The notes under the pieces were generated by a model. That model was given only the letters and a program-made list of their open reading frames with translations, was not told where the DNA came from and ran no database searches. A program made the translations under genes and the position numbers. DNA of 64,000 nucleotides from SAR92 clade bacterium H921. GTDB lineage: Bacteria; Pseudomonadota; Gammaproteobacteria; Pseudomonadales; Porticoccaceae. Shown piece by piece: positions 4,132 through 46,888 of the stretch (within the stretch, counting starts at the first letter, position 1; each line of letters begins with the position of its first letter). Location of the stretch: contig JAOALD010000002.1 of the NCBI GenBank assembly GCA_025153755.1, forward strand, positions 248,001-312,000, in the 5' to 3' direction.

Positions 4132-4763
4132 GGTGACACCTCCCTAATATTGGCCTGCCTAGCCTTGCGCCGCTCTTCGATAGCCCAATTGTTGACCGTC
4201 GGAATACGGTAAAAGTCCAGCATTAATTTAGCGCCAGCATCGCGCAGAGCAATAATTGCAGCCTCTCCGATAGCCGCACTCTTGGATGCCATAAAGGCAT
4301 CTGGGGTTTTGCCATAGGCGGGCATAAACCAGCTGTCTATCGTATCACCATCTGTCGTTTCTAGATCGAGGTTGTATTTTATCCATACTTCAAAAACGTT
4401 GAGATAGTTGTCTGAGGGTACGGAGACCTGCACTTCTCGAATCGAGGGGATAATCACCATGGCCCTATCTAGGGTAATTTCTTCTCTACTGGCAACAAAT
4501 TCTAAGTTACTAAATAAACCGGCAAAGGCATTGCGCAATAGTCGTACCTGAGCTGAGCCAATATCTATTTCTGTTTTTTCATTGGGTCGAGCCACATAGT
4601 TAGAGAAACTGGGCTCAAAAACAATTGCCGCACTCAGCGGTTTTGGTTTTGCTAATACCTGAGGAAAGTCATTGGTCAGTTGTACCGAGGCAGAGGAACT
4701 ACAGCCCGACAATACAATAAGACTTAAAACTGTGGCGAACATTTTCATTTTTATTGTAAACAT
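4128..4763 (-). CDS. lipoprotein of unknown family
   Basis: 211 residues with a lipobox LSLIVLSGC (Cys at about 21) followed by Ser residues, as in an exported lipoprotein. The mature part is a mix of beta strands and helices (SAAIVFEPSFSNYV, VRLLRNAFAGLFSNLEFV, MVIIPSIREVQVSVP). This recalls the general pattern of small periplasmic lipoproteins that bind an envelope partner such as LptE or the transport auxiliary lipoproteins, but I cannot assign a family. Start: the first ATG has GGGTA about 9 bases upstream. It follows the second VWA gene by 13 bp and overlaps the next lipoprotein by ATGA. Confidence 0.68.
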   Translation of the reverse strand: MFTIKMKMFATVLSLIVLSGCSSSASVQLTNDFPQVLAKPKPLSAAIVFEPSFSNYVARPNEKTEIDIGSAQVRLLRNAFAGLFSNLEFVASREEITLDRAMVIIPSIREVQVSVPSDNYLNVFEVWIKYNLDLETTDGDTIDSWFMPAYGKTPDAFMASKSAAIGEAAIIALRDAGAKLMLDFYRIPTVNNWAIEERRKARQANIREVSP

Positions 4764-6818: not shown

Positions 6819-8079
6819 TGCTCACCTCGATCAATGTGAGGCTGTGGCCAGCAATCATAATCTCACTGCCCGGTTCGCACTGATTGGATATATTGCCATC
6901 GATGGCTGTTGACTGATGTATTACCCGCACTTCTTGGTTTTCGATCACAGTGACAACATCGGCTCTATTATTGATGCCTTTGGTGATTATTAGGCCGCTG
7001 TCCGCAATAAAAATACTCAGGGGGCGATTAAGAGGCCATGCGTAATTTTTATACAGCAAATGGGTTGCACAACGTTGTTTGGGCGGTGCTTTTTTATTTT
7101 TTTCGTTGGCGGTAGTTAAACGAGTAATTCGATGCAATGTGCTACTACTGTCGACTATTTGCTGTTCAGCTACCAGGCAATTGTCGACGGCTGCAGTCTT
7201 TGCCATTACCTTAGATCTGGAAAATCTCGGAAGCAGGGCTGGTAGTAGTCTGGCGCTGTGGGCAAAGCTAAGCTGAGCACTGGGATATTTTGCAATGATG
7301 GCATCCAGGCCAGCTAGCCGCTGTTCAAAAATTTTTCTGATGTCGTTGTTGCGCAACGTCACTGGCAGTTCCCCGCGGGGAGAGGGCAGGCTGACCGAAA
7401 TCTCAGTTTCCCAGTTTAGCTGTAGTAACCATTTCGGTAGGTTGTCATAGATAGCCTGTTCGCCCTCTGAGGTATGGAGTGGGTCATGGCGGTAGTCAGC
7501 GATTAAGCGATCACTGATATGCCGAGACACTCCGTTATACAGATGCATAGTACCTAGATCTGGTATCACTTCCTGAGCGCTAACCCTGGTCGCATCAGCG
7601 GTATTTTTAATCAGACTGACTACCGATTGCTGGAGCTGTAGGTCGACTAAAAGAGTTGGTTGTTCTACCTGCAGACCGATAGCCAAGGCACTGTCTATAA
7701 CGCCATCCACTTGTACCGGAATGGCTTGGGCCAACCCTAGTATCAATGCCAGTTGGTCATCGGTGAAACAGCCAGGTACGGCCAGAATAAGATTACTCGG
7801 TGAACCGACCTTATCGAGCATATGCTTGATTTGGCTATAGGCTATATCGCCATGATGGCGGGCCCACTGTTGTTTTTTTGGCAGTGGTAGCTGATTGAGT
7901 TGCCGCCAATATTGATTGTAGCTCGTTTGGGGTTTTAGCCAGGCTGTCGCTCGAGCGTTATCGCCGCTTTCAATTCCAGTGGCCGTTAGCTGGGCGAAGC
8001 CGGGTTCAGTGAAGGACTGACCGTCCTGAGATTGAATCACCAAGGCTTGGTCGTTTAATTCCAAGATGGCCAGAGTCAT
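6811..8079 (-). CDS. degenerate actin/Hsp70-like protein with FHA-like C-terminus
   Basis: 422 residues, no signal peptide or TM, so cytoplasmic. The first half follows the Hsp70/actin order of elements: an initial strand LAILELNDQALVIQ, a strand and helix LILAVPGCFTDDQLALILGLAQ (compare the 'VPA.F...QR.A...A' of Hsp70), VDGVIDSALAIGL in the place of the second helix, then TLLVDLQLQQSVVSLI in the place of the phosphate-2 loop. The Gly-rich GGGT of active ATPases is replaced by LQLQ, so ATP hydrolysis is doubtful. The last 75 residues (PLSIFIADSGLIITKG...PGSEIMIAGHSLTLIEV) resemble the beta-sandwich end of FHA domains, without a clear phosphothreonine site. It lies 3 bp after the TolQ-like gene and overlaps VWA 1. 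A cytoplasmic adaptor for the channel is one guess. The family assignment is by pattern only. Confidence 0.55.
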   Translation of the reverse strand: MTLAILELNDQALVIQSQDGQSFTEPGFAQLTATGIESGDNARATAWLKPQTSYNQYWRQLNQLPLPKKQQWARHHGDIAYSQIKHMLDKVGSPSNLILAVPGCFTDDQLALILGLAQAIPVQVDGVIDSALAIGLQVEQPTLLVDLQLQQSVVSLIKNTADATRVSAQEVIPDLGTMHLYNGVSRHISDRLIADYRHDPLHTSEGEQAIYDNLPKWLLQLNWETEISVSLPSPRGELPVTLRNNDIRKIFEQRLAGLDAIIAKYPSAQLSFAHSARLLPALLPRFSRSKVMAKTAAVDNCLVAEQQIVDSSSTLHRITRLTTANEKNKKAPPKQRCATHLLYKNYAWPLNRPLSIFIADSGLIITKGINNRADVVTVIENQEVRVIHQSTAIDGNISNQCEPGSEIMIAGHSLTLIEVSNA

Positions 8080-8082
8080 GGG

Positions 8083-8889
8083 TTACTTCGCTTTTAAAAA
8101 ACGCAGTAAATTATTCTCACAGTAGGACTGTGAGTCGAGCACCAGTCGCTCCTGAGAGAGCTGTAGCTGGTGCATAAAGAACATTACTACCATGCTGATT
8201 AACAGGGCGATAAAAGTAGAGTTAAAGGCAACGCCTAGGCTGCTGGTCACTCCGGCAATATTGCCAGCAATGGCTTCGTGGGCCTGACCCAAAGCAGCGC
8301 CAATACCCCGCACTGTACCTATAAAGCCTATCGATGGAATTGCCCAGGTAATGTAGCGCACCATAGATAACTCGGAATCGAGGCGATCATTTTCAGTATC
8401 ACAGACACTGCCGACCGCTTCGGTAGCAAATTGCACACTTTCGGTAACTTGAAATCTGGTAAGTGCAGTGTGTAGCGCCCTTGGCAGCAGATAGCTGCGC
8501 TGTTCTTCAGGGAGTGCTTGCAGTGGTCTGGTCAGCTGGGAGGCATCATCGGGAAGTACTCTGGAGCCTTCGGCTATGGACACTAGGGTATGGCTTAGCA
8601 TACGTTGTTCGCGGATAGTGGTGCGGCTTTTATAGCCCATAATTGCCAGCGACCAGAACATGAGGATAAAGCAGGCCTCCTGTTCAAGGTCTTTAATGAC
8701 TATAAAGAATGAGCGCGGTACCTGATATTCTTCCCCAGCGGCGACCATTTCTGCGTGCTGGCGAATAGTGCTCTCGGCATTGGGACGAACCACGGTAACA
8801 AAGATGGTGTGAACAATTATGATGGCCAGCAATAGGGCTATCAGCTGGAAAAACATCTCATTACTGGCGCGGTTGGTTGAAGTATTCAT
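8083..8889 (-). CDS. MotA/TolQ/ExbB-type proton channel protein
   Basis: 268 residues. TM segments at about 13-34 and 70-88 and a closely spaced pair at about 181-203 and 216-238. The latter two carry the family signature: AIPSIGFIGTVRGIGAAL (compare GLLGTVWGI in ExbB) and GVTSSLGVAFNSTFIALLISM, with Thr/Ser lining positions for proton passage. Members form pentamers around two copies of a single-TM partner (ExbD, TolR, MotB) and turn proton motive force into rotation. No exbD/tolR gene is present here; the two VWA proteins encoded just downstream have stems of that type and are the natural partners. A good RBS (AGGA, 8 bases before ATG) supports the start. Confidence 0.88.
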   Translation of the reverse strand: MNTSTNRASNEMFFQLIALLLAIIIVHTIFVTVVRPNAESTIRQHAEMVAAGEEYQVPRSFFIVIKDLEQEACFILMFWSLAIMGYKSRTTIREQRMLSHTLVSIAEGSRVLPDDASQLTRPLQALPEEQRSYLLPRALHTALTRFQVTESVQFATEAVGSVCDTENDRLDSELSMVRYITWAIPSIGFIGTVRGIGAALGQAHEAIAGNIAGVTSSLGVAFNSTFIALLISMVVMFFMHQLQLSQERLVLDSQSYCENNLLRFLKAK

Positions 8890-41013: not shown

Positions 41014-42936
41014 CTAGTTTTGCTGAAATACGCGAATGTAGTCGACCAGCATACGCTGAGGAAATATGGTTGAGGCGTTGGGAGACCCAGGCCAATTGCC
41101 ACCGACGGCGACATTGAATATAAAGAAAAATTCTTCTTGGAAGGCCGCTAAGCCGGCAGGTGTAATATCGATAACATGAAATTGCACATCATCTATGTAC
41201 CAAATGATAGATTGCGCCGACCACTCTAAACTAAAAACATGAAAGCTATTGGCCAAGGTCTCGCCGGCCGCCAGGGTCAAACTACCACCGTAGTCGGCAG
41301 TTTGTCCGTTATTAGACCACCATGTATGGGCGTGGACAGTATCCTCACGGCCGCTGCCGCCAACCATTTCCATAATATCTATCTCACCGGATGCGGGCCA
41401 GCCAACACTCGAGAAATTTTGCCCCAGCATCCAAAGTGCCGGCCATAAACCTTGTCCCTGAGGGAGTCGAGCGCGAATATCAATCCGACCATAGCGAAAG
41501 AATTTCTTGTTTTGAGTCGTGATACGGGATGATGTGTAGCTTGCACCGCCGAAGTTTTCCTCTCGAGCTTCAATAATTAAAACTCCGTCACTAACGCTAG
41601 TATTATCTGGCCTATGATATTGCAGCTCATTGTTACCCCAGCCACCGGCTCCGGTTTCATAATTCCAATCGGTTTGATTTAGCGCGTTTCCAGAGAACTC
41701 ATCGGACCAGGTCAGGGAATAACCGCTGTAGCTTTCGGCAGAGTAATACCCAGTATCAGATGGAATTTCGGCTTCGCCATTGGAATCACTGTCAGTATTG
41801 GCAGAGTCTCCTGTGTTGCCGCCATCAAATTCATCAGACCATACAGGAGCATCTCCAGCCACCGCATTTTGGTCATAGATTCTAACGTAGTCTACCTCTA
41901 GCTCATCTTCAGTGAAGCCGCTATAGATATTTTGTTCAATGGCGAAGTTTAACAGCAGGTATTGTTCCGCATCGAAGGGCCAGGTCGATAGGTTTTTTTC
42001 CTCAGGGGCATAGGTGTAGTGAACAATGTCATCAACACTAAAGACCATCTGCTGGGCTGTCCATTCAAGCTTATAAACATGAAACTGTGATGTAGCAGTG
42101 GCAATAGTTTGCCCACCCTTATTCCCTGTATTACCTGAACTAGACGGCGTGTGGATGGCACTTTGGACAAAGTTCTCGTCACTGCCCCAGTGTTCCATAA
42201 TATCTATTTCGCCAGTGGCCGGCCAAGACGTTGTCCCATAGCCCTGAGTCTGCCAATAGGCGCCCGTTTCGTTAATATTTTTTCCCAGTGTCCAAATAGC
42301 GGGCCATGTACCCATGCCTGAGGGGAGTTTGGCGCGCACTTCGACAGTCCCGTACTGGAATGCATATTTTGAGTTTAGTCGCGCCGAGGTATAGCTTTTG
42401 GTGACGTTTTGATCTCGGTAAGTTTCTTTCTTGGCCACAATTTTTAAGGTGCCATTACTGACATAGGCGTTTTCTATTCGGTCAGTGTAATGCTGCTGCT
42501 CGCCGTTAAACCAACTAGAACCATTAGGTAATTTTGTTTGCTGGAACCACTTGCTACTATCAATGGCCGCAATGGCCGCAGGGTCGGCAACAACATGGAC
42601 TGTGCGCTGAACCGAGGAAGAATTACCCGCCTTATCTGTCGCACTGTAGACCAGAATATAGGTACCCACTGCGGTTCCAACAGTATCTGAGGTTGTAGCG
42701 CTAATTGAGCCATCAATGTTATCTGTGGCATTGGCGCCGGGGTCGTTGTAGATAGTGCCCTGCTGAAGGGTAACTGTTGCGTCCCCATTGAGGCTTATCA
42801 CTGGATCAGTCGAGTCTTTGGGCGCGGCAGGCTCTGGTGTACTGCCTCCGCCGCCTCCACAGGCGTTAATTGCGAATGCAACCAAAACGGTGATGGATAG
42901 TTTTTGGATGAATTTGGATGCAAAATTCAAGTTCAT
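41014..42936 (-). CDS. lipoprotein with tandem GH16 beta-glucanase (laminarinase-type) domains
   Basis: 640 residues from the ATG at 42936; upstream in-frame starts add a non-signal-like stretch. The lipobox is at about Cys26, followed by a Gly run, then an Ig-like/HYR-type domain (about 40-120, TDPVISLNGDATVTLQQG...NSSSVQRTVHV). GH16 domain 1 spans about 125-370 with catalytic GEIDIMEHWG. A Ser/Asp/Asn-rich linker leads to GH16 domain 2 (about 410-640, LTWSDEFSG start) with catalytic GEIDIMEMVG. Both domains keep the E-x-D-x-x-E triad, so both should be active beta-1,3(4)-glucanases. A surface-attached laminarin/beta-glucan degrader. No other polysaccharide genes adjoin it. Confidence 0.92.
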   Translation of the reverse strand: MNLNFASKFIQKLSITVLVAFAINACGGGGGSTPEPAAPKDSTDPVISLNGDATVTLQQGTIYNDPGANATDNIDGSISATTSDTVGTAVGTYILVYSATDKAGNSSSVQRTVHVVADPAAIAAIDSSKWFQQTKLPNGSSWFNGEQQHYTDRIENAYVSNGTLKIVAKKETYRDQNVTKSYTSARLNSKYAFQYGTVEVRAKLPSGMGTWPAIWTLGKNINETGAYWQTQGYGTTSWPATGEIDIMEHWGSDENFVQSAIHTPSSSGNTGNKGGQTIATATSQFHVYKLEWTAQQMVFSVDDIVHYTYAPEEKNLSTWPFDAEQYLLLNFAIEQNIYSGFTEDELEVDYVRIYDQNAVAGDAPVWSDEFDGGNTGDSANTDSDSNGEAEIPSDTGYYSAESYSGYSLTWSDEFSGNALNQTDWNYETGAGGWGNNELQYHRPDNTSVSDGVLIIEAREENFGGASYTSSRITTQNKKFFRYGRIDIRARLPQGQGLWPALWMLGQNFSSVGWPASGEIDIMEMVGGSGREDTVHAHTWWSNNGQTADYGGSLTLAAGETLANSFHVFSLEWSAQSIIWYIDDVQFHVIDITPAGLAAFQEEFFFIFNVAVGGNWPGSPNASTIFPQRMLVDYIRVFQQN

Positions 42937-43363
42937 ATTGAGCTCAGTATTTATTAGCGTTAAGCGAATAATTTTTAAAAGGTCTATGGTCAAAGATTTT
43001 CTACTGACCCATAGCATTTGGCAATTAAAATACGCCAAAGTGTATGGACGAGGCGGTCAACTGGCACAAACATAAAGGCTGTAGTGGACAGGTAGCGAGG
43101 ATACCATTTGGGTATCATCAATAAGCGCCCATCCGACAGCCACGCCCAACGTTGAACGAGCCGCCTCGTTGGATTCATGCCCATAAATTCCCTACTCAGC
43201 CAGCGACCTGAGGTAATGAAAGTTAATAAGTGTGTGTTGCGTCTGGGCCGAAACATCTGCAATGACAGCATTTTAGAGTCGCTCCGTCTGCGTAAAGTTT
43301 GCAGGTGCGACAGAAGGTGAAAAACGCATCTGTCAAGTAACGTAAAACCCCTTAGGTTAGGGC
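42937..43363. other. non-coding stretch upstream of the GH16 gene
   Basis: About 430 bp with no supported gene. It contains the GH16 promoter region and borders the direct repeat at 43364. ORFs through it lack protein-like composition. Confidence 0.4.
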
Positions 43364-43402
43364 TTACAGGGGCCTCAAAGTATGCTTGATACCAGTGGCC
43401 GG
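43364..43402. repeat. displaced tRNA-Leu 3'-end fragment (att-like direct repeat, distal copy)
   Basis: Aligned with 46193-46231 it differs at two positions (43374 C for T, 43389 A for G). The second change destroys the encoded CCA, as expected for a copy no longer under tRNA selection. Similarity continues weakly upstream into a CCCCT/AGGGG inverted repeat resembling the tRNA terminator. Confidence 0.9.
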
Positions 43403-43551
43403 GCGATACATGAGTTATCAAGTTATTGTGATATATCGATTAATGGTAGGGTTATGTATAAAGCGAAATATGGTGCCTCTAGGCATTACAACTCTCTGTC
43501 CCTATTCCAACTACACCAGAACTCTAGGCAACTTTTGCACTACTGTGTGTT

Positions 43552-43722
43552 TTAAAGAGACTCACGGACAGTTTGCGCTAACTCAGAAGCCTTAACAGCA
43601 ACCAGTTCATCGACTGGCACAGCAAGCCCAGATGAGGCGAGCGCAACCAGAGCCATGCAGACGCCGGTTAGCAGGATCAAAACAGCAACTATGTATGTGA
43701 GATTAAACAGTTTATCTTTCAT
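43552..43722 (-). CDS. small membrane peptide, unknown
   Basis: 56 codons then TAA. The translation starts MKDKLFNLTYIVAVLILLTG, giving a charged N-terminus followed by a helix (about 8-33) of Val, Leu, Ala and Gly, then a polar tail ending VRESL. The composition is typical of a small single-pass or secreted peptide. The RBS is weak (GAG 13 bases upstream). Lies within the putative tRNA-Leu island, divergent from the AraC regulator gene 172 bp away. No family recognised. Confidence 0.5.
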   Translation of the reverse strand: MKDKLFNLTYIVAVLILLTGVCMALVALASSGLAVPVDELVAVKASELAQTVRESL

Positions 43723-43894
43723 TGTTTGGTGACTCTACCCACCTATACAGGTCGGCTTTAAAAGCTTTATGTGAAACGGACGACTATCCTAGCCCCTGCC
43801 TGGGACTTGTCTCTGCAAATTACGACAATATATTGACATTACACGACACAAGGTTAGTATTGGACACTATTAGTTTACAAATAGGTGATTTTCT

Positions 43895-44905
43895 GTGGGT
43901 ATGGTTCGTTTTGGAGTTCTTACGGGCTTTGAGCAACAGGTACGGGATTTGCAAGGGGATCCTGGCGCTGTGTTGCGAACTTTGGGTCTCAGCGAAGATT
44001 ATTTCGCCAGTCACCATGAAGAAGATTTTATGCCCTACGACCTGGCTGAGTCTATTTTACATCAAGCCGCTATGGCTACTGCTCACCCTCATTTTGCAGC
44101 GTTACTGGGGGCAAGACATGACATAGCGGTGATGGGTGCGGTTGGCTACTTAATGCAACAGTCCAATAATGTTGGAGCTGCGCTTCAAGAGCTCAGTGAC
44201 CATCATTCATTTCAGGTAAAAGATGCTTCATCAGTAGGTGTTGGCGTGATCGGTGAGCAAGCCTTTGTCAGTTATCATAATTTTAATTCAGTTGAATTCT
44301 CTCGGTATTCGGCCGAATTAGCCATGGCCCATGCTTTAGTAATTATTCGGGCACTCTGTGGCGGTCGCTGGAAACCCATCAGAGTGAACTTCCGGCACAG
44401 GCAGCCAGACCAATTAATGCACTATCTGAAGATATTCTCCGCGCCAGTGTATTTTGGCCAGTTTAAAAATGAAATTCTATTCCCTAAAATCTGGCTCGAC
44501 AAACCGATACCGCGGGCAGACTCAGGCCTTAAACAAATTTTACACACCCATATTACTCAGCTTAATGAGCTGTCAGCTGCAAACCTGCCCGAACATGTTA
44601 TGAGCTTAATTCGAGAGATGTTGCCCTCAGGAGATTGCTCCATTGGCACAGTTGCCGATCGCCTGATAGTGCATGAACGTACGTTGCAGCGCATGTTAAA
44701 ACGGCAGGACACATCGTTTTCAATGCTACTTGATCAGGTGCGCATGGATATTGCCACTGACCGCTTGGCCAACTCAGCAGTCAGCATAATTCAGCTGTCA
44801 GACTACCTTGGGTATGCCGATAACACTGCATTTACCCGTGCATTTAAACGCTGGTACGGGATTACCCCAATGCTATGGCGAAAAAGTCCAGATAGCAGGC
44901 CCTAA
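43895..44905 (+). CDS. AraC-family transcriptional regulator with Arabinose_bd-type N-terminus
   Basis: 336 residues. The N-terminal part (about 10-195) has the pattern of the OruR/ArgR-like sensing domain: DPGAVLRTLGLSEDYF, LLGARHDIAVMGAVGYLMQQSNNVGAALQEL, VSYHNFNSVEFSRYSAELAMAHALVIIRALCG. The two AraC HTH motifs occupy about 240-330: SIGTVADRLIVHERTLQRMLKRQDTSFSMLLDQVR and IIQLSDYLGYADNTAFTRAFKRWYGITPMLWR. GTG at 43895 has AGGTGA 6 bases upstream; ATG at 43901 is the alternative. The ligand and targets are unknown, and it is the only sizeable gene in the putative island. Confidence 0.88.
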   Translation: MGMVRFGVLTGFEQQVRDLQGDPGAVLRTLGLSEDYFASHHEEDFMPYDLAESILHQAAMATAHPHFAALLGARHDIAVMGAVGYLMQQSNNVGAALQELSDHHSFQVKDASSVGVGVIGEQAFVSYHNFNSVEFSRYSAELAMAHALVIIRALCGGRWKPIRVNFRHRQPDQLMHYLKIFSAPVYFGQFKNEILFPKIWLDKPIPRADSGLKQILHTHITQLNELSAANLPEHVMSLIREMLPSGDCSIGTVADRLIVHERTLQRMLKRQDTSFSMLLDQVRMDIATDRLANSAVSIIQLSDYLGYADNTAFTRAFKRWYGITPMLWRKSPDSRP

Positions 44906-45381
44906 GCTTTTACCATAGAGGATGTTGATTGTGTTTGAGCGCGTATGGGTAAAATACAGTTACGGTATCTATAGATTATTTAAGATGCGGGTTAGACTCG
45001 TAAAGTGGCTGACGTTGTATTTCCGCAGATACAGTAATAATAAATTTAGATAGGAAAATTCACCGTTACTTTGAATCGTGGTTGCACATTTTATCGCTAG
45101 CGTAATCGGTTAAGAGAGACGGGAAAAGTCCGTGCAACAATAGAGCAAATGCCATGCTCCAAGCATGGTACAAATGTTGAAAGTATCCCATACCAATGTC
45201 TTTCAAATGATCATTCATGGGCCGGTTCTCCTAAACCTAAGTTAGTTTTTAAAAGCGGTCTAATTATTTCAGATCGCTTTAAGATAGGCAACTAACCCTC
45301 TAATGGACCCCGCTCATATGGAACAGCCCTCCAATGAATAGCAATTCCACAGTTATTGATTTCCTTGATCTTTATAAAGTT
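44906..45381. other. gene-poor stretch within the putative island
   Basis: No convincing gene. A 40-codon GTG frame at 44931-45053 (basic and aromatic) and a 10-bp hairpin near 45251-45280 without a U-run are visible; neither is called. Confidence 0.35.
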
Positions 45382-45576
45382 TTATTGTTTTAAATATTTT
45401 ACTAGGTCGGGGTAGCTGTCTGACCACAACTCAAGAGACTCCATCTTCGAGACTTCTATCCTTAATGCTTCTTCGACTTCCGCAAGAATTTCATACAACT
45501 CATCTAATCTCTCTTGTTGTTTCACGACCCTACAAATTTCATCAAGCATTGAAAGAGAATTTTCACAGTTTAACAC
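45382..45576 (-). CDS. small hypothetical protein
   Basis: 64 residues from a GTG (an internal ATG is at residue 10). The sequence is helical and acidic (LDEICRVVKQQERLDELYEILAEVEEALRIEV), ending SYPDLVKYLKQ, with coiled-coil-like spacing of Leu/Ile. No RBS of note. It lies in the island region next to another minus-strand reading frame. It could be a real small gene or the surviving end of a larger one. Confidence 0.35.
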   Translation of the reverse strand: MLNCENSLSMLDEICRVVKQQERLDELYEILAEVEEALRIEVSKMESLELWSDSYPDLVKYLKQ

Positions 45577-45654
45577 TTCGCTATAGTAGGTATTAAGCTG
45601 TTCTCATGAGCTGTCACTGGATATATTTTTCATTGATCCGAACTCTCTATTGGT

Positions 45655-45879
45655 TTAAAGGTATACCACTTTTGGCTCAAAGCCCGATTCCAACAAATCC
45701 TCTGTTAGCAATTTCAAACAGGCTGAAGATCCATGTCCTATTTGGTGAACGACTAGACACATGCTTTGGAGAGATTGATTAATTTCCCTACCCAAATCGG
45801 TTTGTTCGAGTAGGCCTAAAAAGCCATTGTTGCACCTTTGGCTCTTCGGATCAGTACTGTAGACAAGGACGGTTTTAGC
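45655..45879 (-). pseudogene. start-less 74-codon reading frame with protein-like sequence
   Basis: The open frame from 45879 to a TAA at 45655-45657 reads AKTVLVYSTDPKSQRCNN..., then LLEQTDLGREINQSLQSM and ends LLESGFEPKVVYL. Strand-helix alternation and composition look like genuine protein (a KTVLVYS beginning is typical of Rossmann-like folds), but no ATG, GTG or TTG lies near the 5' end; the first ATG is at 45762. This suggests a gene that lost its start, or a fragment. Family not recognised. Confidence 0.35.
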
Positions 45880-46166
45880 TTACTAGTTACCCGCCCAGAC
45901 GGCGAGTCACGCTAATATTAGTGGAAAATCTGGGAGATATTTCATTCAGATGATCCCAATTATTTAATTTCTAAGACTAAGTTAACACACTCTCACATTT
46001 GTGTAATAGAGAATAGATGCTTGAGGATAGTGCAGAACTCTTGAAATCAGCCTACTTTGTGTCTGGTCAGATACAGTAACAATCGCAAGTACTCAACAGG
46101 CTCCCCCGTGGGGTATAAAGAAGCCCCTGCGTGACTACAAATGTGACTACAAATGACTAGATAAGA

Positions 46167-46204
46167 ACAAAAAAGCCCCTGCAGTCTAATGATTACAGGG
46201 GCTT
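46167..46204 (-). terminator. rho-independent terminator of tRNA-Leu
   Basis: On the minus strand, an AAGCCCCTG / CAGGGGCTT stem of 9 bp (46173-46181 with 46196-46204) is followed by a U-run from the A-run at 46169-46174. It begins 12 nt after the tRNA 3' end. Confidence 0.85.
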
Positions 46205-46231
46205 CAAAGTATGCTTGGTACCAGTGGCCGG
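46193..46231. repeat. att-like direct repeat, tRNA-proximal copy
   Basis: Comprises 23 nt downstream of the tRNA and its last 16 nt (46216-46231). It pairs with 43364-43402 at 37 of 39 positions in the same orientation. Confidence 0.9.
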
Positions 46232-46302
46232 ACTCGAACCGGCACGCTTTTAAGGGCGGGGGATTTTGAATCCCCTATGTCTACCAATTCCATCACACTG
46301 GC
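46216..46302 (-). tRNA. tRNA-Leu (anticodon CAA)
   Basis: 87 nt including an encoded CCA. The acceptor stem is GCCAGTG/CACTGGT with a G-U first pair, the D-loop holds AATTGGTAGACA, and the anticodon arm GGGGA-TTCAAAA-TCCCC gives anticodon CAA. The long variable arm (CGCCCTTAAAAGCG) is typical of type II tRNAs, and the T arm is CCGGTTCGAGTCCGG. Anticodon and long arm together give leucine. Confidence 0.97.
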
Positions 46303-46363
46303 AAAGGGTCTTTCTTTAGCTTTTAGCCCTAACCATTGCTGGGCGGGGTCTAATTGGCCGGCG

Positions 46364-46391
46364 ATTATAGCAGTGACGCTCTGGGGGTCAA
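46364..46391 (-). promoter_or_regulatory. sigma-70 promoter of tRNA-Leu
   Basis: On the minus strand, TTGACC (46391-46386) and TATAAT (46369-46364) are 16 bp apart, about 60 nt before the tRNA. The bases after the -10 (CGCCGGCC) form a GC-rich discriminator, as in stringently controlled stable-RNA promoters. Confidence 0.7.
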
Positions 46392-46888
46392 CTGATTTGC
46401 ATCTATCTCAAGTCTCGGGAGCCGATCCATCAGGTGTTGGTAGCTATTTAGGGTCTCTGACTAGACGTTTTGTCCAGCGTTGCAAAACTTGGCTGAATAA
46501 AGGTAGGGACTATACTGGTGATGCATCTAAAAGAGTTGTGCCGATCCCAGGAATTGCTGGGATCCTAAAATAGGATTCTTTGTCGGCGATTTTTTTGAAA
46601 TAGACTTCTGATTGATATGGATTCTGTCTGTGACCCTAATGAGTCCAGCTTTGCGGGTGCCAGATCAAATCATGTTTAATTTATAGCCTTTGTTGCCTCT
46701 AGAGACTCTCTGCTAAATGGTATATTCAATATATAGGCCAATCTATGCCTATGACGATCAAGTACACTCGTACAAGCGAGCAGATGGAGTAGGTAGGCCT
46801 TAGAAAACATAGTAAATTGCTTATGGCTCTGCATTTGGTTTGCTCTTTGTGGGTACTAGATCTCAGGGATAAAAGGAGGAACTATGAC
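46392..46888. other. intergenic stretch between tRNA-Leu and the GntR regulator gene
   Basis: About 500 bp with no supported gene. An 8-bp perfect hairpin (GATCCCAG, 6-nt loop, CTGGGATC, 46543-46564) lacks a U-run. A short frame ending at 46573 runs through the tRNA and is not credible as a whole. Confidence 0.35.

What the first reader, a model, noticed from the sequence alone, without database searches (positions are those of the whole stretch)
43364..46231. tRNA-Leu 3'-end duplication marks a 2.8-kb decayed island
37 of 39 bp match between the displaced fragment and the true tRNA end, in direct orientation, and the copy has lost its CCA. The enclosed DNA is gene-poor and has an AraC regulator and small frames. 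No integrase remains.
Basis: partly seen in the sequence, partly recalled or inferred. Interest (0 to 1): 0.55.

Follow-up and report, generated by a model that had tools for sequence, protein, structure and literature searches.

The report
Stripped mobile island beside leucine tRNA
A 2.8-kb stretch beside a leucine tRNA gene of a marine gammaproteobacterium looks like the stripped remnant of mobile DNA that inserts at this tRNA in sister species, and it carries a regulator gene that came from another species; this is mostly an ordinary kind of genomic island.

Summary
The repeat is real: 43364-43402 matches 46193-46231 at 37 of 39 bases, in direct orientation, and spans the tRNA-Leu(CAA) 3' end plus the bases after it. 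The site is an integration hotspot in this genus (Porticoccaceae). Species G011 has the textbook case: a 7.2-kb island with a tyrosine recombinase, whose displaced tRNA end is followed by the native-type terminator. The window's 166 bp next to the tRNA are 91% identical to that island's end, including a pair of 12-bp arm-like repeats; no recombinase was found. The cargo, an AraC regulator with a small ORF, lies beside tRNA-Cys/tRNA-Leu(UAA) in six relatives. Its AraC CDS is 91% identical to G022, against 72-79% for three housekeeping genes, so it probably arrived horizontally. Refinement: the distal copy is followed by a decayed element-type terminator, so the island may be an element inserted beside an older remnant (tandem accretion). 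An ~80-bp repeat, R1, lies just inside such ends at several tRNAs and was found only in this genus among 56 genomes. New member of a known kind.

The parts
46216..46302 (-). tRNA-Leu(CAA), intact, the integration target
   Evidence: ARAGORN; Rfam tRNA
46193..46231 (.). tRNA-side copy of the direct repeat (tRNA 3' end plus downstream bases)
46170..46215 (-). element-type terminator-like hairpin straight after the tRNA
   Evidence: read by eye; shared type in 14 of 32 genus loci
46131..46154 (-). two adjacent ATTTGTAGTCAC repeats (46131-46142, 46143-46154), arm-like sites
   Evidence: only perfect copies in the window; same pair at both ends of the G011 island
46044..46122 (-). R1 repeat, full copy, reading into the island
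   Evidence: 88.4 bits; this copy was in the model's alignment
45002..45043 (-). partial R1 copy (model positions 38-79)
   Evidence: 22.1 bits, E 4.9e-4
45382..45576 (-). 64-aa frame with no relative in 49 other genus genomes; may not be a gene
43895..44905 (+). AraC-family regulator (cargo)
   Evidence: Pfam
43552..43722 (-). 56-aa frame divergent from AraC and conserved with it in relatives (cargo)
43548..44929 (.). transplanted block: small frame plus AraC; identity to relatives stops at these edges
43404..43503 (.). distal inner end, weakly like the distal inner end of the G011 island
43364..43402 (.). displaced copy of the tRNA 3' end
43344..43386 (-). decayed element-type terminator outside the displaced copy
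   Evidence: 43344-43402 matches L025 8048-7989 at 86.7% of 60 columns

Best explanation
43364-46231 is a remnant, without recombinase, of integrative element(s) that use the tRNA-Leu(CAA) 3' end as attachment site. Most likely mechanism: a tyrosine recombinase joined an incoming element to the tRNA 3' end; the tRNA was rebuilt with the element's own 3' end, terminator, paired arm-like repeats and R1, and the former 3' end was pushed 2.8 kb away. The pushed-away end already carried an element-type terminator, so an older element remnant probably held the site (tandem accretion). The cargo (AraC plus a small protein) came from a lineage near G022, where it lies beside tRNA-Leu(UAA). Recombinase and other mobility genes were lost later, or were never on this unit and acted in trans. 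Shown here: the repeat, the hotspot, the shared element end, the other location of the cargo in relatives and its unexpected closeness to G022. Inferred: the recombination reaction, the order of insertions, the loss of the recombinase, and how the cargo got from one tRNA to the other.
For: Repeat 37 of 39, largest count in 100 shuffles 0. G011: island of 7.2 kb at the same tRNA with a PF00589 recombinase, displaced end 18/18 followed by the native-type terminator, arm pair inside both ends. Window proximal end without the tRNA 91.1% over 168 columns to G011. Arm pairs differ between species but agree within a pair. AraC block beside tRNA-Cys/tRNA-Leu(UAA) in G022, G011, G019, G060, G041, and beside tRNA-Cys in G013. 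G000-G022 identity: AraC CDS 91.2%, queA 72.3%, tgt 78.6%, secD (part) 76.3%. queA+tgt reject G000+G022+G011 as a clade, p-AU 0.00365. Distal inner end resembles G011's.
Against: No relative of the G011 recombinase in G000 and no remnant in the island. The right-hand junction is not the native-type end that a single insertion should leave. The element-type terminator also occurs in G004 and G020, where I saw neither an arm pair nor a displaced end in the 7.1 and 6.5 kb read, so it may be a chromosomal variant, which weakens the accretion step. The distal inner match is short and weak. The species tree rests on two adjacent genes next to the hotspot, and the clade test named its group after the tree had been seen.
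Confidence: 0.8

Rival explanations
1. One element only: it entered a chromosome whose own tRNA terminator was already of the 'element type', and then decayed. The two copies are its two attachment sites and there was no earlier element.
For: Element-type terminators without arm pair or displaced copy in G004 and G020; one insertion is simpler.
Against: On the queA+tgt tree G016, G017, G018 and G002, in the same part of the tree as G000, have native-type sequence next to the tRNA, so native is the likelier earlier state there; G060 shows the same double element-type pattern with an arm-like site after the distal copy.
Confidence: 0.3
2. The unit never had a recombinase: it is a small cargo island moved in trans by a recombinase of related elements.
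For: G060 has a second small island at this tRNA (1.9 kb) with the same arm pair; I saw one long cargo frame by eye and no recombinase was noted. The cargo has crossed species.
Against: No matching recombinase in G000 today; 44930-46040 is long, GC-poor (39% against 48% for the window) and holds only short frames, as decay would leave.
Confidence: 0.2
3. Old local duplication of the tRNA end, with no mobile element.
For: Short tandem units that begin with the tRNA 3' end and keep the native-type terminator exist at this tRNA in G010, with similar single cases in G065 and G063.
Against: Contents between the copies are unrelated to the flanks and include a block that sits elsewhere in relatives; the tRNA-side DNA is shared with an island that has a recombinase.
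Confidence: 0.03

Closest known systems
tRNA-gene-targeted genomic islands as mapped by Islander (PMC4383910; abstract and passages)
   Same: Intact tRNA gene at one end, displaced 3' fragment in direct orientation at the other, different contents in relatives.
   Different: No integrase gene inside, which Islander requires; the far end lacks the native-type terminator.
CIME: element that lost integration and transfer genes but kept attL and attR, often in tandem accretion (PMC5704250; passages)
   Same: No recombination genes, two tRNA-end junctions, tandem arrangement likely.
   Different: Descent from a conjugative or mobilizable element and mobilization in cis are not shown.
Tycheposons (passages of PMC10872708; the original Prochlorococcus work only recalled)
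   Same: tRNA-bordered cargo islands in marine bacteria.
   Different: Given there as 4-200 kb with a tyrosine recombinase; here 2.8 kb without one.
The G011 island at the same tRNA (L025 8005-15200)
   Same: Same tRNA, tRNA-side end 91% identical, same arm pair, weak match at the distal inner end.
   Different: Has a recombinase, other cargo, and the native-type terminator beyond its far end.

Membership tests
tRNA-targeted genomic island (Islander definition) | Displaced 3' fragment of the tRNA gene, direct orientation, on the 3' side | tested here: met
tRNA-targeted genomic island (Islander definition) | tRNA gene left intact by island sequence | tested here: met
   ARAGORN; end shared with the G011 island
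tRNA-targeted genomic island (Islander definition) | Integrase gene inside | tested here: not met
   present in the G011 island
tRNA-targeted genomic island (Islander definition) | Different content at the same site in relatives | tested here: met
CIME | Both attL and attR retained | tested here: inconclusive
   tRNA side clear; far side carries an element-type, not native-type, terminator
CIME | Integration and transfer genes lost | tested here: met
   recombinase sought; no transfer gene seen among the frames or in Pfam for the three frames scanned
CIME | Moved in cis by a related element | not testable with these tools
   needs an excision or transfer assay
Tycheposon | 4-200 kb with a tyrosine recombinase at a tRNA | tested here: not met
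   2.8 kb, no recombinase; definition from passages
rtT-like tandem tRNA-end repeats (recalled from E. coli tyrT) | Tandem units of under about 200 bp, each starting with the tRNA 3' end | tested here: not met
   one displaced copy 2.8 kb away in the window; Rfam finds only the tRNA

The most novel reading that the evidence does not exclude
The island belongs to a genus-wide family of tRNA-targeting cargo units that use different recombinases and tRNAs but share one ~80-bp end module, R1. R1 would be a common cis signal: a leader that switches on whatever cargo lands behind it, or a transfer signal that lets very small units without a recombinase (1.9-2.8 kb) spread between species in trans.
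Probability: 0.15. Interest if true: 0.7.

Novelty: new member of a known kind. Interest (0 to 1): 0.36.

Why it matters
It links, for uncultured marine Porticoccaceae, an intact element (G011), a stripped remnant (window), the cargo's other home beside tRNA-Leu(UAA) (G022 and others) and a probable cross-species transfer. If R1 proves to be a shared end module, such elements could be found by sequence even after the integrase is gone.

Tried and rejected
A further tRNA fragment near 45159, expected if the partial R1 copy marked another junction, is not supported (12 of 23 bases, p 0.425). Integrase remnants: 13 queries, lowest E 0.067. Rfam: only the tRNA in 43000-46800; in five relatives' loci only tRNAs in three and nothing in two, so no rtT match for the tandem units. 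R1 as a phage packaging site: two exact core strings are absent from IMG/VR, and of 83 phage records with a match to the island the 20 shown match only at the tRNA; this gives no support but does not exclude it. The G011 recombinase had no relative confirmed in IMG/VR and only weak ones in 4 of 55 other genomes (which counts 5 of 56 with G011 itself). Papers: searches were seen as listings; passages were read of PMC5704250, PMC10872708 and PMC4383910. None of the ten titles listed of 54 names this site; that is no proof that it is not in print.

Full report
OBSERVATION. The window is part of contig C6 of a 2.57-Mb genome, here G000. tRNA-Leu(CAA) is at 46216-46302 on the - strand. The direct repeat is 43364-43402 and 46193-46231, 37 of 39 identical, offset 2829; the largest number of matches in 100 shuffles was 0. 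The copy lies on the 3' side of the tRNA in direct orientation, as integration predicts.

HOTSPOT. One search covered 50 genomes of the genus, G000 included. I could place and read tRNA-Leu(CAA) in 32 of them, plus one outgroup, G031; 18 were not read in that call, of which G002 was read apart. Sorted by eye, the sequence straight after the tRNA is native-type (AACA... then a GGGG-stem and TTTTTT) in 15, element-type in 14, unlike both in 2 (G008, G037), and cut by a contig end in 1 (G041). G002 is native-type. Displaced tRNA ends with at least 15 of 18 bases occur in 8 of 32: G000, G011, G043, G017, G019, G010, G065, G063. G060 has a degenerate one, 13 of 16. In G010, G065 and G063 they lie 150-530 bp away; G010's keep the native-type terminator and look like short tandem repeats, a different matter. 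G043's copy is preceded by masked bases. In G017 and G019 the order is reversed: native-type next to the tRNA, element-type after the displaced end. Beyond the tRNA, GH16 and pyrF follow at varying distance where the read piece reaches them.

THE COUSIN WITH A RECOMBINASE. In G011, 7.2 kb separate the tRNA from a displaced end of 18/18 bases. Inside is a PF00589 protein, E 1.6e-7, 31.7 bits over a cut-off of 27.1. The tRNA carries the element-type terminator and the displaced end the native-type one, which is the exchange of 3' ends expected from integration. ATTTGTAGTCAC pairs lie inside both ends. In other genomes the pair has another sequence but its members agree: ATTTCCTGTCAC in G058, AATTCCTGTCAT in G040 and G043. 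Recombinase arm sites would behave so; that function is inferred.

THE WINDOW'S ISLAND. Its 166 bp next to the tRNA are 91.1% identical to G011 over 168 columns, with the arm pair at 46131-46154, the only perfect copies in the window. Its distal inner 100 bp resemble G011's distal inner end: local score 36, reached by 0.05% of 2000 shuffles (largest 37) and 0.07% of 3000 window samples (largest 54). This is one weak comparison. Outside the distal copy, 43344-43402 match the element-type junction of G011 at 86.7% of 60 columns, not the native type. I read this as a second, older junction, i.e. tandem accretion. G060 shows the same pattern with another cargo. Against it: G004 and G020 have an element-type terminator with neither arm pair nor displaced end in the piece read, so a single insertion into such a chromosome stays possible.

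CARGO. AraC is the only close copy in G000; the next G000 hit is 27% identical. AraC lies between tRNA-Cys and tRNA-Leu(UAA) in G022, G011, G019, G060 and G041; in G013 it lies beside tRNA-Cys and no tRNA-Leu was found in the piece read. In G018 and G020 the two tRNAs are 219 and 144 bp apart. In G000 they are 2350 bp apart, around a frame of 677 aa that I take, from memory, for a BCCT-type transporter. G000-G022 identity is 91.2% for the AraC CDS and 88.7% for the block, but 72.3% for queA, 78.6% for tgt, 76.3% for part of secD, and 76.1% upstream of tRNA-Cys. G000-G011 is 84.1% for the AraC CDS and 82.5% for the block, against 72.8-78.5% for queA, tgt, secD and secF. G022 and G011, sisters on queA+tgt (100/100) at 91.5%, have 85.3% in the block. 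Holding G000 with G022 and G011 on queA+tgt is rejected, p-AU 0.00365, though I named that group after seeing the trees. The AraC nucleotide tree joins G000 and G022 at 94/94, just below the tool's mark for strong support. A horizontal origin is the best reading. How the block left the other tRNA is unknown. G000 and G022 also share 902 bp at 92.9% at tRNA-Leu(UAA), including the start of a recombinase-like gene, so exchange between these lineages is not confined to this island.

R1. A repeat of about 80 bp (46044-46122) was modelled from 14 copies and found in 19 of 35 genus genomes and 0 of 21 others of the order, with the stricter filters used above 40 genomes. Of the 40 matches listed I examined 33; 7 were dropped (a contig end without upstream sequence, the partial window copy, and five of the weaker ones). 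In 9 of 33 a perfect 9-base pair lies within about 150 bp before R1, against 3 of 600 controls; in 10 of 33 a tRNA T-arm pattern lies within about 250 bp, against 22 of 600. Orthologous sites recur, so these counts are not independent; the controls came from the fetched loci, many of them near tRNAs. tRNAs near R1 are Leu(CAA), Ser(GCT), Ser(GGA) and Met; beside two Met cases the tRNA points the other way. Two copies in G000 contig C7 lie near tRNA-Leu(UAA) fragments. In 16 of 33 a frame of 80 aa or more starts within 300 bp after R1; no control was run for this. Most copies (23 of 33) show no T-arm, so R1 is not strictly tied to tRNAs. Its function is unknown.

VERDICT. Most likely a site-specific integration at the tRNA 3' end by a tyrosine recombinase, probably beside an older remnant, then loss of the recombinase (or a unit moved in trans from the start), with horizontally acquired AraC cargo. 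It works like a tRNA-targeted island. The strict Islander definition fails on the missing integrase; CIME status stays open. It is a new member of a known kind; R1 is the part that could become more.

Noticed in passing
window 46044-46122, partial 45002-45043; other copies: R1, an ~80-bp dispersed repeat with a TGTATCT-n4-AGATACA core, in 19 of 35 genus genomes and 0 of 21 others of the order; often just inside element ends at tRNAs.
   Followed up: partly
L047 2605-4982 and L046 16313-17273 (G000 contigs C7 and C8): tRNA-Leu(UAA) also looks like a hotspot: displaced tRNA-Leu(UAA)-like ends at L047 2605-2679 (85%) and 4645-4719 (100%), the latter beside a 269-bp piece 98.9% identical to the start of the recombinase-like gene after the tRNA.
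   Followed up: partly
G000-G022 and G036-G047: No XerD model match over the cut-off in 35 genus genomes (best E 6.8e-26, G011), against 13 of 21 others of the order; only 4 of 14 control genomes pass that cut-off. Possible absence of the usual XerC/XerD.
   Followed up: no
L041 (G010) around 8038-8600; L169 (G065); L176 (G063): Short units starting with the tRNA-Leu(CAA) 3' end, 150-530 bp from the tRNA; tandem in G010; recall E. coli rtT repeats, but no Rfam match for G010.
   Followed up: partly
window 41014-43364; L036 (G001): In G000 and G001 a GH16-like gene follows this tRNA region directly, while several relatives have other genes in between; in G001 an R1 copy ends 97 bp before that frame.
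   Followed up: no
L046 13962-16313: In G000 the tRNA-Cys/tRNA-Leu(UAA) gap, home of AraC in relatives, holds a 677-aa frame that looks like a BCCT transporter (by eye).
   Followed up: no
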